64,000 nucleotides of DNA from an uncultured Granulosicoccaceae bacterium. Its GTDB lineage: Bacteria > Pseudomonadota > Gammaproteobacteria > Granulosicoccales > Granulosicoccaceae. How positions within the stretch are numbered: the first letter of the stretch is position 1; every line of letters starts with the position of its first letter. Position numbers and translations under genes: made by a program. Shown piece after piece: positions 43,610 through 49,060 of the stretch. Location of the stretch: NCBI GenBank assembly GCA_937927895.1, contig CALGKA010000039.1, forward strand, positions 1 to 64,000, read 5' to 3'. Under the pieces are notes generated by a model. It ran no database searches and had not been told where the DNA came from. It saw nothing but the letters and a program-made list of their open reading frames with translations.

Positions 43610-45565
43610 TTAGAACTTATCTTCTACAGCAACCAATGTACGCCTGGTGTCTCCGATACGCTGCGTAAATCTACAGCGATCAAAGTACTCAAGTATCTCT
43701 ACCACCAGGTTTCTCCCAACCCCTGACTTGTCGCGAAAGGCAGCAACAGTCAGTTTATCGCCCGCGCTTAGCGACACTGCAATGTGCGCAAGCTTTCTTA
43801 AGGTTTGCGGTAAAAAATATCTATTTTCAGTTACCTTGTATAGCTTCCCATGAGACACGCAGTGCATTAGAAACTTGTGTGTCTCATCAACTGTTTTATC
43901 CAATACTTTCGCAAGCTCAGCTACACGCGGAGGGGCAAGCGAATCAACAGAAACACTGTCGCTAATTCTCTGCCACTGTAATTGGTCCTCGCTTGATAGT
44001 GTAATCTCATGATCACAAAGACGGTAGACAGTGGCGTTTCTTATAATCGTTGAATCTTGCACCAGTAACGTAAGATGCAGCTCTAGTAACGCAACATCTA
44101 CTTTTAATGGGTAAAGTTTTTTTAAGCGAAGCGCATCTACTCCGAGCACTTCTGGATGTGCAGCATGGAACTGCCTTAAAACCTCAAGCAGATCGACCTT
44201 AAGCGCACTGCTCTGCGATTCTTTCATTCCCCATAATTCATTAGCTGCACGATGTACCACCAAACCAAGTTCGCTTGTTATAGATTCAAGCTCGGTTGAA
44301 TTGAGATTTAGCTTCCGTGAAAAAGCAGTTAAATTCACCCCGGCAGGTTGCAGATCAACAAGTTCACTTAATGCTTGTGCAGAGGTTTTAGCATTTAATG
44401 CTTTAAGCTCTTTTAAACGAGCGGGCTTACTACGCCCACGCCTTGGAGGGTACGGGTCAAGCACGCGACCACCTGCTATAGTCTTACGCGCTGATTGATC
44501 TCGTAATACAAATCGATCACCGTGCACTGCAAAAAACGGTTTCTCACATATTAGTCTGGCAAGTGCATGTTCACCGTGAGCAAGTTCCGTGGTATCAAGC
44601 AGCGCAATACGGCAAGGAATATCTGCAGTGCCAAGATGCAAATGTGCCGGTGTCCAATGATGCAACTTATATGTATTATGGGTTGGCTTGGCAGATGCAT
44701 TTCTATTTTCACTTACAAAAAGTGCAGGTGTAATTATTACATCTATAAAATTTACGCACTGCACATCAGCATTAGAAACTAACCAATCACCTCGCTGTAA
44801 CATCGGACGGGTGAGTTCACCGCTAACATTAAGAGCACACCGCTGTCCGACAAAGGCATGCTTCGCTTCAGTGTTTTGTGCATGGATGCTTCTTACACGG
44901 GCAGACTTTGCATGGTCTGCACTAGCGGAAGCTAATGTGACCGTGTCACCTTTACTGATCGCTCCGTCTACTACGGTACCCGTCACGACAGTACCGCTAC
45001 CGTCGAGTATAAAGCTACGGTCAATTGCCATGCGAAAACTACCTCGCTTGTGCCGAGGTAGCTGCGCACCGGCTAGTTCAACAACACGCTCTTTAAGAAG
45101 GTTTACTGCCGCCTGATCATTGCTTGCAAGAGCAAACAACTGGCTATTCTCAAACCCCGCTTGCCGCAGTAGATCACTCACTAGATTTTCAACTTCCTTA
45201 ACCCGCTCAGGTTCGACCAGGTCAATTTTACTCACTAACGCCACTACATTTCGCACAGACATTAATTGCAGAATAGCGATATGCTCCAGTGTTTGCGGCA
45301 TTGGCCCATCATCTGCTGCCACCACCACCAATGCGATATCTACCATCCCAACACCGGCGATCATATTACGAACAAATTTCTCATGCCCTGGCACATCAAT
45401 AAACGCCAGGTTTTGGCCGCTGTCATTTTTTAAATAGGCAAAGCCAAGATCAATTGTTAAGCCGCGCTTTTTTTCCTCGGGGAGCCTGTCTGTATTAGTG
45501 CCGGTGAGCGCTCTAACGAGCGAAGTCTTGCCATGATCGACATGGCCTGCGGTGGCTATAATCAT
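43610..45565 (-). CDS. selB: Selenocysteine-specific translation elongation factor
   Basis: 651 residues from the ATG at 45565; the frame is open further upstream but no SelB extends there. The EF-Tu-like GTPase domain starts MIIATAGHVDHGKTSLVRAL (G1 at 7-14). DTNRLPEEKKRGLTIDLGFA and VDVPGHEKFVRNMIAGVG (G3 region) follow, then G4 VSKID. Barrel domains follow (SFRMAIDRSFILDGSGTVVTGTV as motif). The C-terminal half holds the winged helices that read the mRNA hairpin. It delivers Sec-tRNA to UGA codons. It is divergent from, and 125 bp from, the candidate selenoprotein gene, with selA after that. selC and selD are not seen in the window. Confidence 0.95.
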   Translation of the reverse strand: MIIATAGHVDHGKTSLVRALTGTNTDRLPEEKKRGLTIDLGFAYLKNDSGQNLAFIDVPGHEKFVRNMIAGVGMVDIALVVVAADDGPMPQTLEHIAILQLMSVRNVVALVSKIDLVEPERVKEVENLVSDLLRQAGFENSQLFALASNDQAAVNLLKERVVELAGAQLPRHKRGSFRMAIDRSFILDGSGTVVTGTVVDGAISKGDTVTLASASADHAKSARVRSIHAQNTEAKHAFVGQRCALNVSGELTRPMLQRGDWLVSNADVQCVNFIDVIITPALFVSENRNASAKPTHNTYKLHHWTPAHLHLGTADIPCRIALLDTTELAHGEHALARLICEKPFFAVHGDRFVLRDQSARKTIAGGRVLDPYPPRRGRSKPARLKELKALNAKTSAQALSELVDLQPAGVNLTAFSRKLNLNSTELESITSELGLVVHRAANELWGMKESQSSALKVDLLEVLRQFHAAHPEVLGVDALRLKKLYPLKVDVALLELHLTLLVQDSTIIRNATVYRLCDHEITLSSEDQLQWQRISDSVSVDSLAPPRVAELAKVLDKTVDETHKFLMHCVSHGKLYKVTENRYFLPQTLRKLAHIAVSLSAGDKLTVAAFRDKSGVGRNLVVEILEYFDRCRFTQRIGDTRRTLVAVEDKF

Positions 45566-45690: not shown

Positions 45691-46860
45691 ATGGCAAGAC
45701 TGAACGAAATGGTGGAGGGCCTGCGAACGACTGTCGAAACGCTGGATTGCCCAACGTTTTCTGATGCCGCTTTCACATCAGCACGACCCCTAAATGAGTG
45801 TCGGGTGGCATTAATATCGACAGCCGGCCTAATGCGCCGCAACGACGACAATGTACCAGGCAATAGCGACGACTACCGTAGTTTTGACAAAACCTGTCAA
45901 AACCGGGACATTCTGATAAATCACATATCAGTCAATTTTGATCGAACAGCATTTGCCGAAGACGCCAACACTGTCCTTCCAAAAGACCTATTAAAAACGT
46001 TAGCAGAAGACGGCACGATAGCAAAAGCGGCTGATACCCATTATTCATTTTTAGGCGCAACCGGCGCTGCTCAACTAGAGAAGAACGCCAAACGCTTAGC
46101 AGAGGAATTAAACGAGCTAAATATCAACACTGTTTGCCTACTACCTGTTTGACCTGCCTGTACTCGCGCCGTGAGCGTGATTGCACATTGGATCGAACAA
46201 GCTGGAATCAACACTGTTGTTATTGGATCAATCAAACCACAACTTGAGAAAATAAAGCCACCAAGAGCCTTGTGGGTACCATTTGAACTCGGCCGCCCAC
46301 TGGGACCACCTAGCAATCCTGAAGTACAATTGCAGGTGTTACGCCAGGCACTTGGCTTAATAGAAACAGCACAACAAGCTATAATTGAGGACTTTGAAAC
46401 TGATGATCCGCGCGCTACACCTGCTAAGGTTTGGAACGCTCCTGGTATTGACGCCATGACAACAGTGGCTGAAGAATGTGCAGCCCTTAAAGTGTACTAC
46501 CAGCAGCAATGCGTTAGCCAAAGCAGAACTTCAGTAGGGGTCGCTAAAACTCCCATAATTGAACTGGCAGAATTGTTTGATCATGTTTACCAACACAATA
46601 AACTTAAAGAGATACGGGAAGATATCTCATCACGATTAATGTTTCGCTTAGCACTTGATGATCTCAAGGCGTACTATATAGAAGCAGCACTAGGCAACAA
46701 TAAGCAACCGTCTAGCGTACAAATATACGATTGGATATGGAAAGACACTTTGCTTGGCAAACAGATGCGTGAGCTACGTAAGCGTTTTATGGAATCAGAT
46801 GATAAAAAAATTAGCGATTTGGGAGCAAAGTTTATCGTGCCACACCAATGGCGTGATTAA
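45691..46860 (+). CDS. Selenoprotein of the glycine/D-proline reductase selenoprotein B (GrdB/PrdB) family, UGA read as selenocysteine
   Basis: One 389-residue protein split by an in-frame TGA at 46150-46152, which I read as selenocysteine 154. Start ATG 45691 has GGAG seven bases upstream. The first half has ARPLNECRVALISTAGLM, then VCLLPV-U-PAC-TRAV, a UxxC redox pair (Sec154, Cys157) placed as in PrdB. After it come GINTVVIGSIK and PRALWVPFELGRPLGPPSNPEVQ, matching the family. About residues 245-389 form an extension beyond PrdB length that I do not recognise. It is bracketed by selB and selA. These enzymes reduce a bound substrate with the Sec-Cys pair; the substrate here is unknown. A true double-frameshift pseudogene is unlikely, since both halves are intact and in phase. 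Confidence 0.88.
46150..46175 (+). promoter_or_regulatory. Selenocysteine UGA codon and candidate bacterial SECIS hairpin
   Basis: TGA at 46150-46152 is followed after 10 nt by CTCGC-GCC-GTGAG (46163-46175), a 5-bp stem with one G-U pair and a GCC loop whose G lies 18 nt from the U of the UGA. Bacterial SECIS elements are local hairpins just 3' of the UGA with a G in the apical loop, recognised by SelB. This one is short. A competing 3-bp stem (CGC/GCG with a 7-nt loop) exists, so the exact fold is uncertain. Confidence 0.55.
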
Positions 46861-46950
46861 TAACTACGGGATTAATTACTCCGCGTTAAATAATTGCATA
46901 TCGACTCCAATCGAAAATATCAACTCATCAAATGTTTGGACATCATAGCG

Positions 46951-48366
46951 ATGTCCAAACCATTTCAACTTAATCAACTGCCATCAGTTGATCGCGTTCT
47001 ACAAACCAGTTTATTTTCCGAGCTACTACAGCAATATGGTCGCGAGTCAGTGCTGTCAGCGCTACGGGCACAACTTGACCTCACAAGACAACAACTGCAA
47101 GCTAATGAACAGATCGCTGATGCGAGCACCGAAGATTCTATAATAGAGACGCTCAGCAACAATGTGGCCTTATCATTGGCTACTGAATTCACCCCGTCAC
47201 TCAAACGTGTTTTTAATCTTACCGGTACCATTCTGCATACTAATCTTGGCAGAGCACCCTACCCTCAATCTGCAATCGATGCGATGGTGGATGTAAGCCG
47301 CGGCGCATGCAACCTTGAATACAACTTGCACACGGGTAAGCGTGGTCGCCGCGATGATCACGTAGAAAAATGGATCTGCAAACTTACTGGTGCTGAAGCA
47401 GCCACTACCGTTAACAACAATGCTGCGGCTGTACTGCTGACTTTAAACAGTATTGCAAACCGACGGAACGTTATCGTGTCCCGCGGTGAACTCATCGAAA
47501 TTGGTGGCTCATTCAGAATTCCCGCCATTATGGAAAAGGCCGGCTGCAAGCTGCGTGAAACAGGCACAACTAATCGTACACATCTAAAGGACTACAAGGA
47601 AGCGATCGGTAAAAAAACAGCCGCACTAATGAAAATACATACCAGCAACTTTGAAATTAACGGCTTCACTAAAAGTGTTGCAGCAACAGATCTAGCCGCG
47701 TTAGCACAAAGCCATAGTATTCCGCTGATAGACGATCTAGGTAGTGGCACGCTAGTAGATCTTACGCAGTTCGGTTTGCCTTACGAACGCACTGCCAAGG
47801 AAGCACTCACTGACGGTGCAGATATCATTACCTTTAGCGGCGATAAACTTTTAGGCGGCCCCCAATGTGGGATCATTGCAGGCCGCAAAGATTTAATCGA
47901 GCTAATTGATAAGAACCCAATAAAAAGAGCCATGCGACTCGACAAGGTGGCACTTGCAGCCCTTGCGGAGGTTTTAAAACTATACGCGACACCTGAGACT
48001 CTAGTAACGCAAGTACCATCTTTGGCTATGTTATCTCGAAAAGCCGCTGAGATTAAAATCACGGCAATCAAGCTACAGAGTGCGCTCAACTCACATCTCA
48101 CAAACTATCAGGTATCAGTGAGTCCTTGTCAGAGCCAAATTGGCAGCGGCGCACTACCTACTCGCACACTAGACAGTTACGCAGTAGTGGTGCATGCGTC
48201 ATCAGGCAGTTCAGTAAACAAGCTGGCGGCACGCTTTAGGGATTTATCGGTTCCCATCATCGGCCGTATTGCCCAAGAAGCACTATGGTTAGACTGCCGC
48301 GCTATAGAACATGAGCTAGATGAATTAATCAAAATGTTTAACGTTGATTTAGCCAGCAGCACCTAA
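46951..48366 (+). CDS. selA: L-seryl-tRNA(Sec) selenium transferase
   Basis: 471 residues from the ATG at 46951; the frame extends to 46894 without family support. SelA marks: RRVFNLTGTILHTNLGRAPYP, CNLEYNLHTGKRGRRDDHVE, NNNAAAVLLTLNSIA, SRGELIEIGGSFRIP, ETGTTNRTHLKDY, IDDLGSGTLVDL, and SGDKLLGGPQCGI with PLP Lys299. It converts Ser-tRNA(Sec) to Sec-tRNA(Sec) using selenophosphate in a PLP-dependent decamer. It lies 90 bp after the selenoprotein gene on the same strand, so the two may be co-transcribed. SelD, the selenophosphate source, is elsewhere. Confidence 0.95.
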   Translation: MSKPFQLNQLPSVDRVLQTSLFSELLQQYGRESVLSALRAQLDLTRQQLQANEQIADASTEDSIIETLSNNVALSLATEFTPSLKRVFNLTGTILHTNLGRAPYPQSAIDAMVDVSRGACNLEYNLHTGKRGRRDDHVEKWICKLTGAEAATTVNNNAAAVLLTLNSIANRRNVIVSRGELIEIGGSFRIPAIMEKAGCKLRETGTTNRTHLKDYKEAIGKKTAALMKIHTSNFEINGFTKSVAATDLAALAQSHSIPLIDDLGSGTLVDLTQFGLPYERTAKEALTDGADIITFSGDKLLGGPQCGIIAGRKDLIELIDKNPIKRAMRLDKVALAALAEVLKLYATPETLVTQVPSLAMLSRKAAEIKITAIKLQSALNSHLTNYQVSVSPCQSQIGSGALPTRTLDSYAVVVHASSGSSVNKLAARFRDLSVPIIGRIAQEALWLDCRAIEHELDELIKMFNVDLASST

Positions 48367-48397: not shown

Positions 48398-49060
48398 TTA
48401 ATGAGCCTCGATACCTGCACGTGCTTCAGCGCCCCACACCTTATTGACACGCTTATCACGGCCACATGCATTTCGATAGTACTTGTAGCGGATCGGATTT
48501 TTTTGATAATAATTTTGGTGGTAATCTTCAGCGGGCCAAAACTCAGCAGCAGGCTCAATAGGTGTAACTATGTCCTGCCTTAACGCGCCACTTTCTATCA
48601 ACTGAGATTTAGATTGTTCTGCAGCTTCAGCCTGTGCTTGATCCACTGCGTAGATTGCGGTGGTGTAGCTATGACCACGGTCGCAAAATTGTCCGCCATC
48701 GTCAGTGGGATCAACGCTGCGCCAAAAAGTATGTAGTAACTGTTCATAGCTCACCTTTGAAGCATCAAAGGTAATCTGCACTACTTCGCGGTGCATACCA
48801 GCATGGTGGTTTTTGTAAGTAGGTTTTTTTGTCGTGCCCCCGGAGTAACCAGAAACAGTCTCAATGACACCAGGGACCGCATCAAAATCAGACTCGACAC
48901 ACCAAAAGCATCCTCCCGCAAAAATCGCTATACTTTCTGATACTGGGGTACTGTCACTACCAGAGTCGCTGTCGGCGGCTCGGACAGTTAGGGACAATGT
49001 GGCTATAACACCAATTAGCATGGCCGCCAGTACAATTGGCTTTAGAATTTGTTCTCTCAA
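48398..49060 (-). CDS. msrA: Peptide methionine sulfoxide reductase MsrA, exported form
   Basis: 220 residues. A hydrophobic N-terminal segment (about 7-28) ends in VRAAD, a likely Sec signal, so the enzyme should act in the periplasm. The catalytic motif is GGCFWCVESDFD, nucleophile Cys51 followed by Cys54. HREVVQITFD, YEQLLHTFWRSVDPTDDGGQFCDRG and FWPAEDYHQNYY complete the family pattern. It reduces the S-epimer of oxidised methionine using thioredoxin-type donors. The nucleophile is cysteine, not selenocysteine, even though sel genes are adjacent. It converges with selA (31 bp between stops). Confidence 0.93.
   Translation of the reverse strand: MREQILKPIVLAAMLIGVIATLSLTVRAADSDSGSDSTPVSESIAIFAGGCFWCVESDFDAVPGVIETVSGYSGGTTKKPTYKNHHAGMHREVVQITFDASKVSYEQLLHTFWRSVDPTDDGGQFCDRGHSYTTAIYAVDQAQAEAAEQSKSQLIESGALRQDIVTPIEPAAEFWPAEDYHQNYYQKNPIRYKYYRNACGRDKRVNKVWGAEARAGIEAH

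What the first reader, a model, noticed from the sequence alone, without database searches (positions are those of the whole stretch)
46420..46860. Unrecognised C-terminal extension of the selenoprotein
PrdB-type proteins are about 240 residues. Here the PrdB-like part ends near residue 245 and a further 145 residues follow, mostly helical, ending LLGKQMRELRKRF...FIVPHQWRD. It may replace the missing partner subunit (substrate binding or electron entry) and make this a one-polypeptide reductase.
Basis: inference. Interest (0 to 1): 0.7.

Follow-up and report, generated by a model that had tools for sequence, protein, structure and literature searches.

The report
Helical tail on PrdB-like selenoproteins
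A bacterial selenium-containing protein related to a known amino-acid-reducing enzyme carries an extra helical domain at its end; the domain is real, conserved across a whole family and matches nothing known, but what it does is still open.

Summary
With TGA 46150-46152 read as selenocysteine, the window encodes a 389-residue protein. Residues 20-229 align with the whole of a real PrdB and end where PrdB and GrdF end; about 160 residues follow.

Homologues show that the tail is not unique to this protein. All 35 relatives in a single clade (support 100/98) carry it, and all use Sec (U-P-x-C-T-R). They come from Granulosicoccaceae and one other gammaproteobacterial family. Closest short homologues (mostly Cys, about 300 aa) share the tail to about residue 278. 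The truly unshared part is therefore about 280-389, an all-helical domain (pLDDT 88.5) with no Pfam or NCBIfam family and no convincing PDB match. It evolves under purifying selection like the core.

It does not align with PrdA, GrdG or GrdF. PrdA/GrdE and GrdA families were not found in the genomes tested, while positive controls rang. The tail has no conserved Cys or His, which argues against electron entry or a Cys-derived pyruvoyl group.

Best reading: a Sec enzyme of the GrdB/PrdB kind, working without a PrdA/GrdE partner, with the helical domain as lid or substrate-side domain. "One-polypeptide reductase" remains inference. A paralogue lies beside choline/betaine and S/N-oxide genes in 3 of 5 well-covered loci, a substrate lead.

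The parts
45691..46860 (+). Extended PrdB/GrdB-like selenoprotein gene, 389 aa plus stop
   Evidence: translation with TGA=U; full-length homologues with TGA at the same codon
45691..46377 (+). PrdB-like core, residues 1-229
   Evidence: hhalign to PrdB 20-229 and GrdF 11-230; TIGR04483 25-228; PF07355 31-150
46150..46152 (+). In-frame TGA read as selenocysteine (U154) in the motif V-U-P-A-C-T-R
   Evidence: adjacent selA and selB
46159..46185 (+). Stem-loop just after the TGA, SECIS-like
   Evidence: conserved stem-loop in 16 homologues; pairs kept mostly unchanged or by one-sided changes, so covariation support is weak
46378..46527 (+). First part of the extension, residues 230-279; alignable with the tail of the short Cys homologues
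   Evidence: hhalign of 34 extended against 23 short homologues reaches about residue 278; hits
46528..46857 (+). Second part of the extension, residues 280-389: all-helical domain without known relatives
   Evidence: AlphaFold; no family; no convincing PDB match; pN/pS; invariant G283, D324, E331, W350
43610..45565 (-). selB, divergent neighbour (start inferred from where the family match begins)
   Evidence: TIGR00475 405.6 bits over cut-off 242
46894..48366 (+). selA, downstream neighbour
   Evidence: TIGR00474 581.5 bits over cut-off 268

Best explanation
This is a member of an unnamed family of Sec-containing GrdB/PrdB-like enzymes in which a C-terminal helical domain was acquired once, or was kept in this lineage and lost elsewhere, and has been retained since. 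The core is expected to carry the chemistry: Sec154 with Cys157 in a U-P-x-C-T-R motif attacks or reduces a small substrate and is re-reduced by a cellular thiol system. No PrdA/GrdE-type pyruvoyl subunit and no GrdA were found. The most likely role of the helical domain is to pack on the core and close or shape the substrate side of the Sec site, through the invariant E262, D324, E331 and W350, so that the protein works without that partner. Shown here: the domain is real, conserved, predicted helical, unique to this Sec clade, and accompanied by absence of detected partner families. Inferred: the packing on the core (from pTM 0.88 of the full-length model), the lid or substrate role, and the reductase activity.
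For: Single clade of 35 extended cores (support 100/98, one change against a shuffled mean of 21). All extended members keep Sec, while 21 of 23 short ones have Cys. Tail length after the motif is cleanly trimodal: 87-91 in PrdB/GrdB, 125-145 in uncut short homologues, 235-260 in uncut extended ones. Full-length model pLDDT 89 and pTM 0.88, and the extension alone 88.5 and 0.85. PF09338 absent in 19 genomes and GrdA in 12, with positive controls. Purifying selection on 280-389. Invariant polar and aromatic residues, no conserved Cys or His. selA and selB beside the gene in most loci of the window type and intermediate type.
Against: No coordinates of the model could be inspected, so contact between the domain and the Sec site is not shown. 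pTM is only indirect evidence of fixed packing. The genomes are drafts (77-98% complete), so a partner could be missed. Families unrelated to PF09338 or GrdA could serve as partner. No activity or substrate is known.
Confidence: 0.45

Rival explanations
1. The helical domain is an oligomerisation or docking domain that binds another, still unknown protein (for example an electron donor), rather than part of the active site.
For: All-helical domain with invariant acidic and aromatic residues and no recognised catalytic motif. Weak structural resemblances are to helical repeat and 14-3-3 type folds, with Z 4-5, which is within background.
Against: No conserved neighbour other than selA and selB for the window type and the intermediate type taken together. 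Most invariant residues could equally be structural.
Confidence: 0.27
2. The domain is a structural appendage that stabilises the fold and has no direct catalytic or docking role.
For: Few strictly invariant positions (E262, G283, D324, E331, W350), several of which are typical of packing.
Against: Purifying selection comparable with the catalytic core and universal retention in two paralogous lineages.
Confidence: 0.2
3. The domain is a shrunken PrdA/GrdE-like partner subunit or an electron-entry module fused to the Sec subunit.
For: The partner families are not found in these genomes.
Against: No alignment with PrdA, GrdG or GrdF (hhalign probability about 0.1%). No conserved Cys or His for a Cys-derived pyruvoyl, Fe-S or thiol relay.
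Confidence: 0.05
4. The TGA is a true stop; the protein ends at residue 153 and the rest is a separate 229-codon ORF or a decaying remnant.
For: Mechanical ORF calling splits the gene at 46150.
Against: TGA is at the same codon in all extended homologues with reading frame and constraint continuing after it. A stem-loop follows it, and selA and selB are adjacent. Full-length PrdB and GrdB also have Sec at this site.
Confidence: 0.02

Closest known systems
PrdB, D-proline reductase 26-kDa selenoprotein (TIGR04483)
   Same: Residues 20-229 align over nearly the whole PrdB with 26-27% identity; Sec at the same place in a UxxC motif.
   Different: Score 96 against a cut-off of 300. Motif U-P-x-C-T-R instead of U-G-T-C-H-R. 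Extra C-terminal domain. No prdA or prdC beside it and no PF09338 gene found in the genome.
GrdB/GrdF/GrdH, selenoprotein B of glycine, sarcosine and betaine reductase (PF07355, TIGR01918)
   Same: The C-terminal half of GrdB matches the core; PF07355 passes its cut-off (44.6 against 22 bits).
   Different: Lacks the roughly 200-residue N-terminal half of GrdB and has a C-terminal domain GrdB lacks. Below the TIGR01918 cut-off (56.4 against 65.45).
Short proteobacterial 'glycine/sarcosine/betaine reductase selenoprotein B family protein' (about 300 aa, motif CPVCHQ, mostly Cys)
   Same: Closest relatives by tree; alignment extends into the first part of the tail, to about residue 278.
   Different: No 280-389 domain. 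Usually Cys instead of Sec. Different neighbours.
Marine 'PrdB' selenoproteins of the Sargasso Sea and GOS surveys (PMC1088965, PMC2398784)
   Same: PrdB-related selenoproteins with UxxC, abundant in marine metagenomes; may include this family.
   Different: The passages read describe no C-terminal domain; the sequences could not be compared here.

Membership tests
GrdB superfamily domain (Pfam PF07355) | Profile score over the gathering cut-off | tested here: met
   44.6 bits against cut-off 22
GrdB superfamily domain (Pfam PF07355) | Redox Sec/Cys motif UxxC at the conserved site | tested here: met
   U154-P-A-C157 aligned with the PrdB and GrdF Sec site
PrdB (TIGR04483 equivalog) | Score over the equivalog cut-off | tested here: not met
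   96.3 against 300 bits
PrdB (TIGR04483 equivalog) | About 240 residues with no C-terminal domain | tested here: not met
   389 residues; tail after the motif 236 against 91 in PrdB
PrdB (TIGR04483 equivalog) | PrdA partner gene present | tested here: not met
   PF09338: 0 of 19 draft genomes, positive control rings on three records that carry prdA or grd genes
PrdB (TIGR04483 equivalog) | D-proline reductase activity | not testable with these tools
   needs enzyme assay
GrdB/GrdF/GrdH (TIGR01918) | N-terminal half of about 200 residues | tested here: not met
   alignment with GrdF starts at GrdF residue 201
GrdB/GrdF/GrdH (TIGR01918) | GrdA and GrdE partners | tested here: not met
   PF04723 0 of 12 and PF09338 0 of 19 genomes with working controls
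PrdA/GrdE-type partner (hypothesis for the extension) | Sequence similarity to PrdA or GrdG | tested here: not met
   hhalign probability about 0.1%
PrdA/GrdE-type partner (hypothesis for the extension) | Conserved Cys that could yield a pyruvoyl group | tested here: not met
   no conserved Cys after residue 229
Any known fold for residues 280-389 | Structural match in the PDB | tested here: inconclusive
   best Foldseek E 0.55; VIA Z 5.3 over 78 residues, inside the background for helical bundles

The most novel reading that the evidence does not exclude
A single-polypeptide, pyruvoyl-independent selenoenzyme family in Gammaproteobacteria, in which a new helical domain takes over substrate capture from PrdA/GrdE. 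One paralogue would act on methylated amines or betaines, since it lies beside choline/betaine transport, choline dehydrogenase, GcvT-like demethylase or S/N-oxide reductase genes in 3 of 5 well-covered loci.
Probability: 0.17. Interest if true: 0.75.

Novelty: new variant of a known kind. Interest (0 to 1): 0.45.

Why it matters
PrdB- and GrdB-type selenoproteins are textbook subunits of anaerobic Stickland reductases and need a pyruvoyl partner. A Sec clade that lacks the detectable partner, carries its own conserved domain and is usually encoded beside selA and selB makes a clear question testable: what does this chemistry do, and with which substrate, without the partner. It also offers a defined, unnamed domain for structure work and may explain part of the many marine 'PrdB' selenoproteins reported from metagenomes.

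Tried and rejected
Pfam, NCBIfam and PDB-sequence searches of the extension or whole protein gave nothing for the extension. Foldseek and VIA-align searches of the whole model and of the extension alone gave only background matches; importin, 14-3-3 and TOG-like rows are not taken as relatives. A scan of viral contigs gave no relative. An extension-only profile over 398 genomes of the phylum found only the window's gene, so no free-standing form was seen. Two truncated pieces carrying only the tail (G782 C216, G805 C76) are at or near contig starts; the G805 piece has unrelated DNA upstream while the 5' part of the gene ends at another contig edge, so both are read as assembly breaks. One alignment call failed on wrong coordinates. 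Covariation in the post-TGA stem-loop is weak: no pair has a both-sided change, so the SECIS claim rests on conservation and context. Other phyla could not be sampled beyond the one genome-contig scan, which returned six gammaproteobacterial loci.

Full report
Observation. Reading TGA as selenocysteine, 45691-46857 gives 389 residues with U154, followed by two stop codons. The core is a GrdB/PrdB-type domain: PF07355 over its cut-off for 31-150, and TIGR04483 PrdB for 25-228, but at 96 bits against a cut-off of 300. Real chains were fetched for comparison: PrdB and PrdA from an Enterococcus gilvus plasmid, PrdB from Terrisporobacter, GrdF and GrdG from Peptoclostridium acidaminophilum. PrdB aligns along nearly its whole length with residues 20-229. 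GrdF aligns through its C-terminal half with residues 11-230 and ends there.

Who has the extension. The first scan found six loci, all gammaproteobacterial MAGs, five of them labelled Granulosicoccaceae. Searches in the window's genus, family and order, class and a second gammaproteobacterial family, f232, gave many more. Three extended subgroups appear: the window type, a more distant intermediate type also usually next to selA/selB, and a paralogue with U-P-F-C-T-R and a tail ending PLPGSSASAW or similar. A tree of the core alone, with the extension left out, puts all 35 extended cores on one side of a branch (support 100/98, one change, shuffled mean 21) and 23 short homologues on another. 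Tail length after the motif is 235-260 in uncut extended members, 125-145 in uncut short homologues and 87-91 in PrdB/GrdB; every extended member has Sec, 21 of 23 short ones in the tree have Cys. The extension is therefore a family trait, not a one-off fusion. It is rare: an extension-only profile hit only the window's genome among 398 of the phylum.

Where the new part begins. Profile alignment of 34 extended with 23 short homologues runs on to about residue 278. Thus 230-279 is shared with the short relatives' tails and 280-389 is the part not seen in any of them.

Is it a real, selected domain. Within the window type pN/pS is 0.19-0.33 for 280-389, 0.16-0.34 for the core and 0.22-0.47 for 230-279. 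Over 34 sequences E262, G283, D324, E331 and W350 are invariant; no Cys or His is conserved after residue 229.

Structure. AlphaFold with 19 homologues gave pLDDT 89.1 and pTM 0.88 for the whole protein and 88.5 and 0.85 for the extension alone, six helices. The high whole-chain pTM suggests that the domain is placed firmly on the core; this is an inference, because no coordinates could be read. PDB searches gave no convincing relative for either part, and sequence profiles found no solved relative.

Partner. The extension does not align with PrdA, GrdG or GrdF. The partner family PF09338 was not found in 19 genomes of this group; the same search rang on three plasmid records that hold prdA or grd genes. 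GrdA was not found in 12 genomes, with a working control. These are draft genomes, so absence is strong but not absolute.

Sec decoding. selB (divergent) and selA (downstream) flank the gene in the window, and selA and/or selB lie beside most window-type and intermediate-type genes, including those of f232. One f232 copy (L110) has none nearby and the paralogue-only loci do not. A conserved stem-loop follows the TGA, with weak covariation.

A substrate lead from the paralogue. Near the paralogue lie: in L061, BetI- and BetA-like genes and, by clustering with L107, a betaine/choline ABC set; in L107, an S/N-oxide (TorA/BisC family) reductase, the betaine/choline ABC transporter and a GcvT-type gene whose best NCBIfam match is TMAO demethylase (below cut-off); in L109, the same reductase family, a GcvT-type gene and a TauD-type dioxygenase. 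Two other loci (L062, L064) lack these. So 3 of 5 loci with good coverage point to methylated amines; this is suggestive, concerns the paralogue, and may not apply to the window's protein.

Mechanism. Established chemistry of GrdB/PrdB (own knowledge) has the Sec subunit working with a pyruvoyl subunit that binds the amine substrate. Here that subunit is not detected, and the extension cannot supply a Cys-derived pyruvoyl. The best-supported account is a Sec-thiol enzyme of the same core fold whose substrate side is completed by the helical domain. A docking domain for an unknown partner is the main rival.

Literature. Surveys of marine metagenomes list many 'PrdB' selenoproteins with UxxC (PMC1088965; PMC2398784), and a 2026 review tabulates D-proline reductase under TIGR04483 (PMC13188914). 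Searches for a described C-terminal extension, or for selenocysteine in Granulosicoccus, returned no paper in the held library.

Noticed in passing
L061:464-8700; L107:629-10400; L109:147-10994: The UPFCTR paralogue lies beside betaine/choline ABC transporter, BetI/BetA, S/N-oxide reductase and GcvT-type demethylase genes in two families of Gammaproteobacteria, a possible substrate hint.
   Followed up: partly
G000 contigs C147:7303-8091 and C18:50611-51390 (L045, L047): The window's genome holds two near-identical Cys homologues without the extension (about 305 aa, motif NCPVCHQSVSLAAR).
   Followed up: partly
L040:1507-2091; L042:1504-2148: Two gammaproteobacterial genomes carry a Sec version (VAMUPVCHQTV) of the otherwise Cys-type short homologue.
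   Followed up: no
L107:9671-17200; L108:1766-7750; L115:1-7279: In f232 both extended paralogues flank a selA-selB pair, with an iron-type alcohol dehydrogenase beside it in L107 and a homologue of that gene in L115.
   Followed up: partly
window 48398-49060 (-): An MsrA gene with a long N-terminal leader, apparently exported, converges on selA.
   Followed up: no
L057:5528-7075; L057:3347-4492; L113:476-4640: A SelO gene and Old Yellow Enzyme/TMA-dehydrogenase-type FMN genes lie near the intermediate type of the family.
   Followed up: no
window 1-64000: ARAGORN finds no tRNA in the window, so selC lies elsewhere in the genome or was missed.
   Followed up: no
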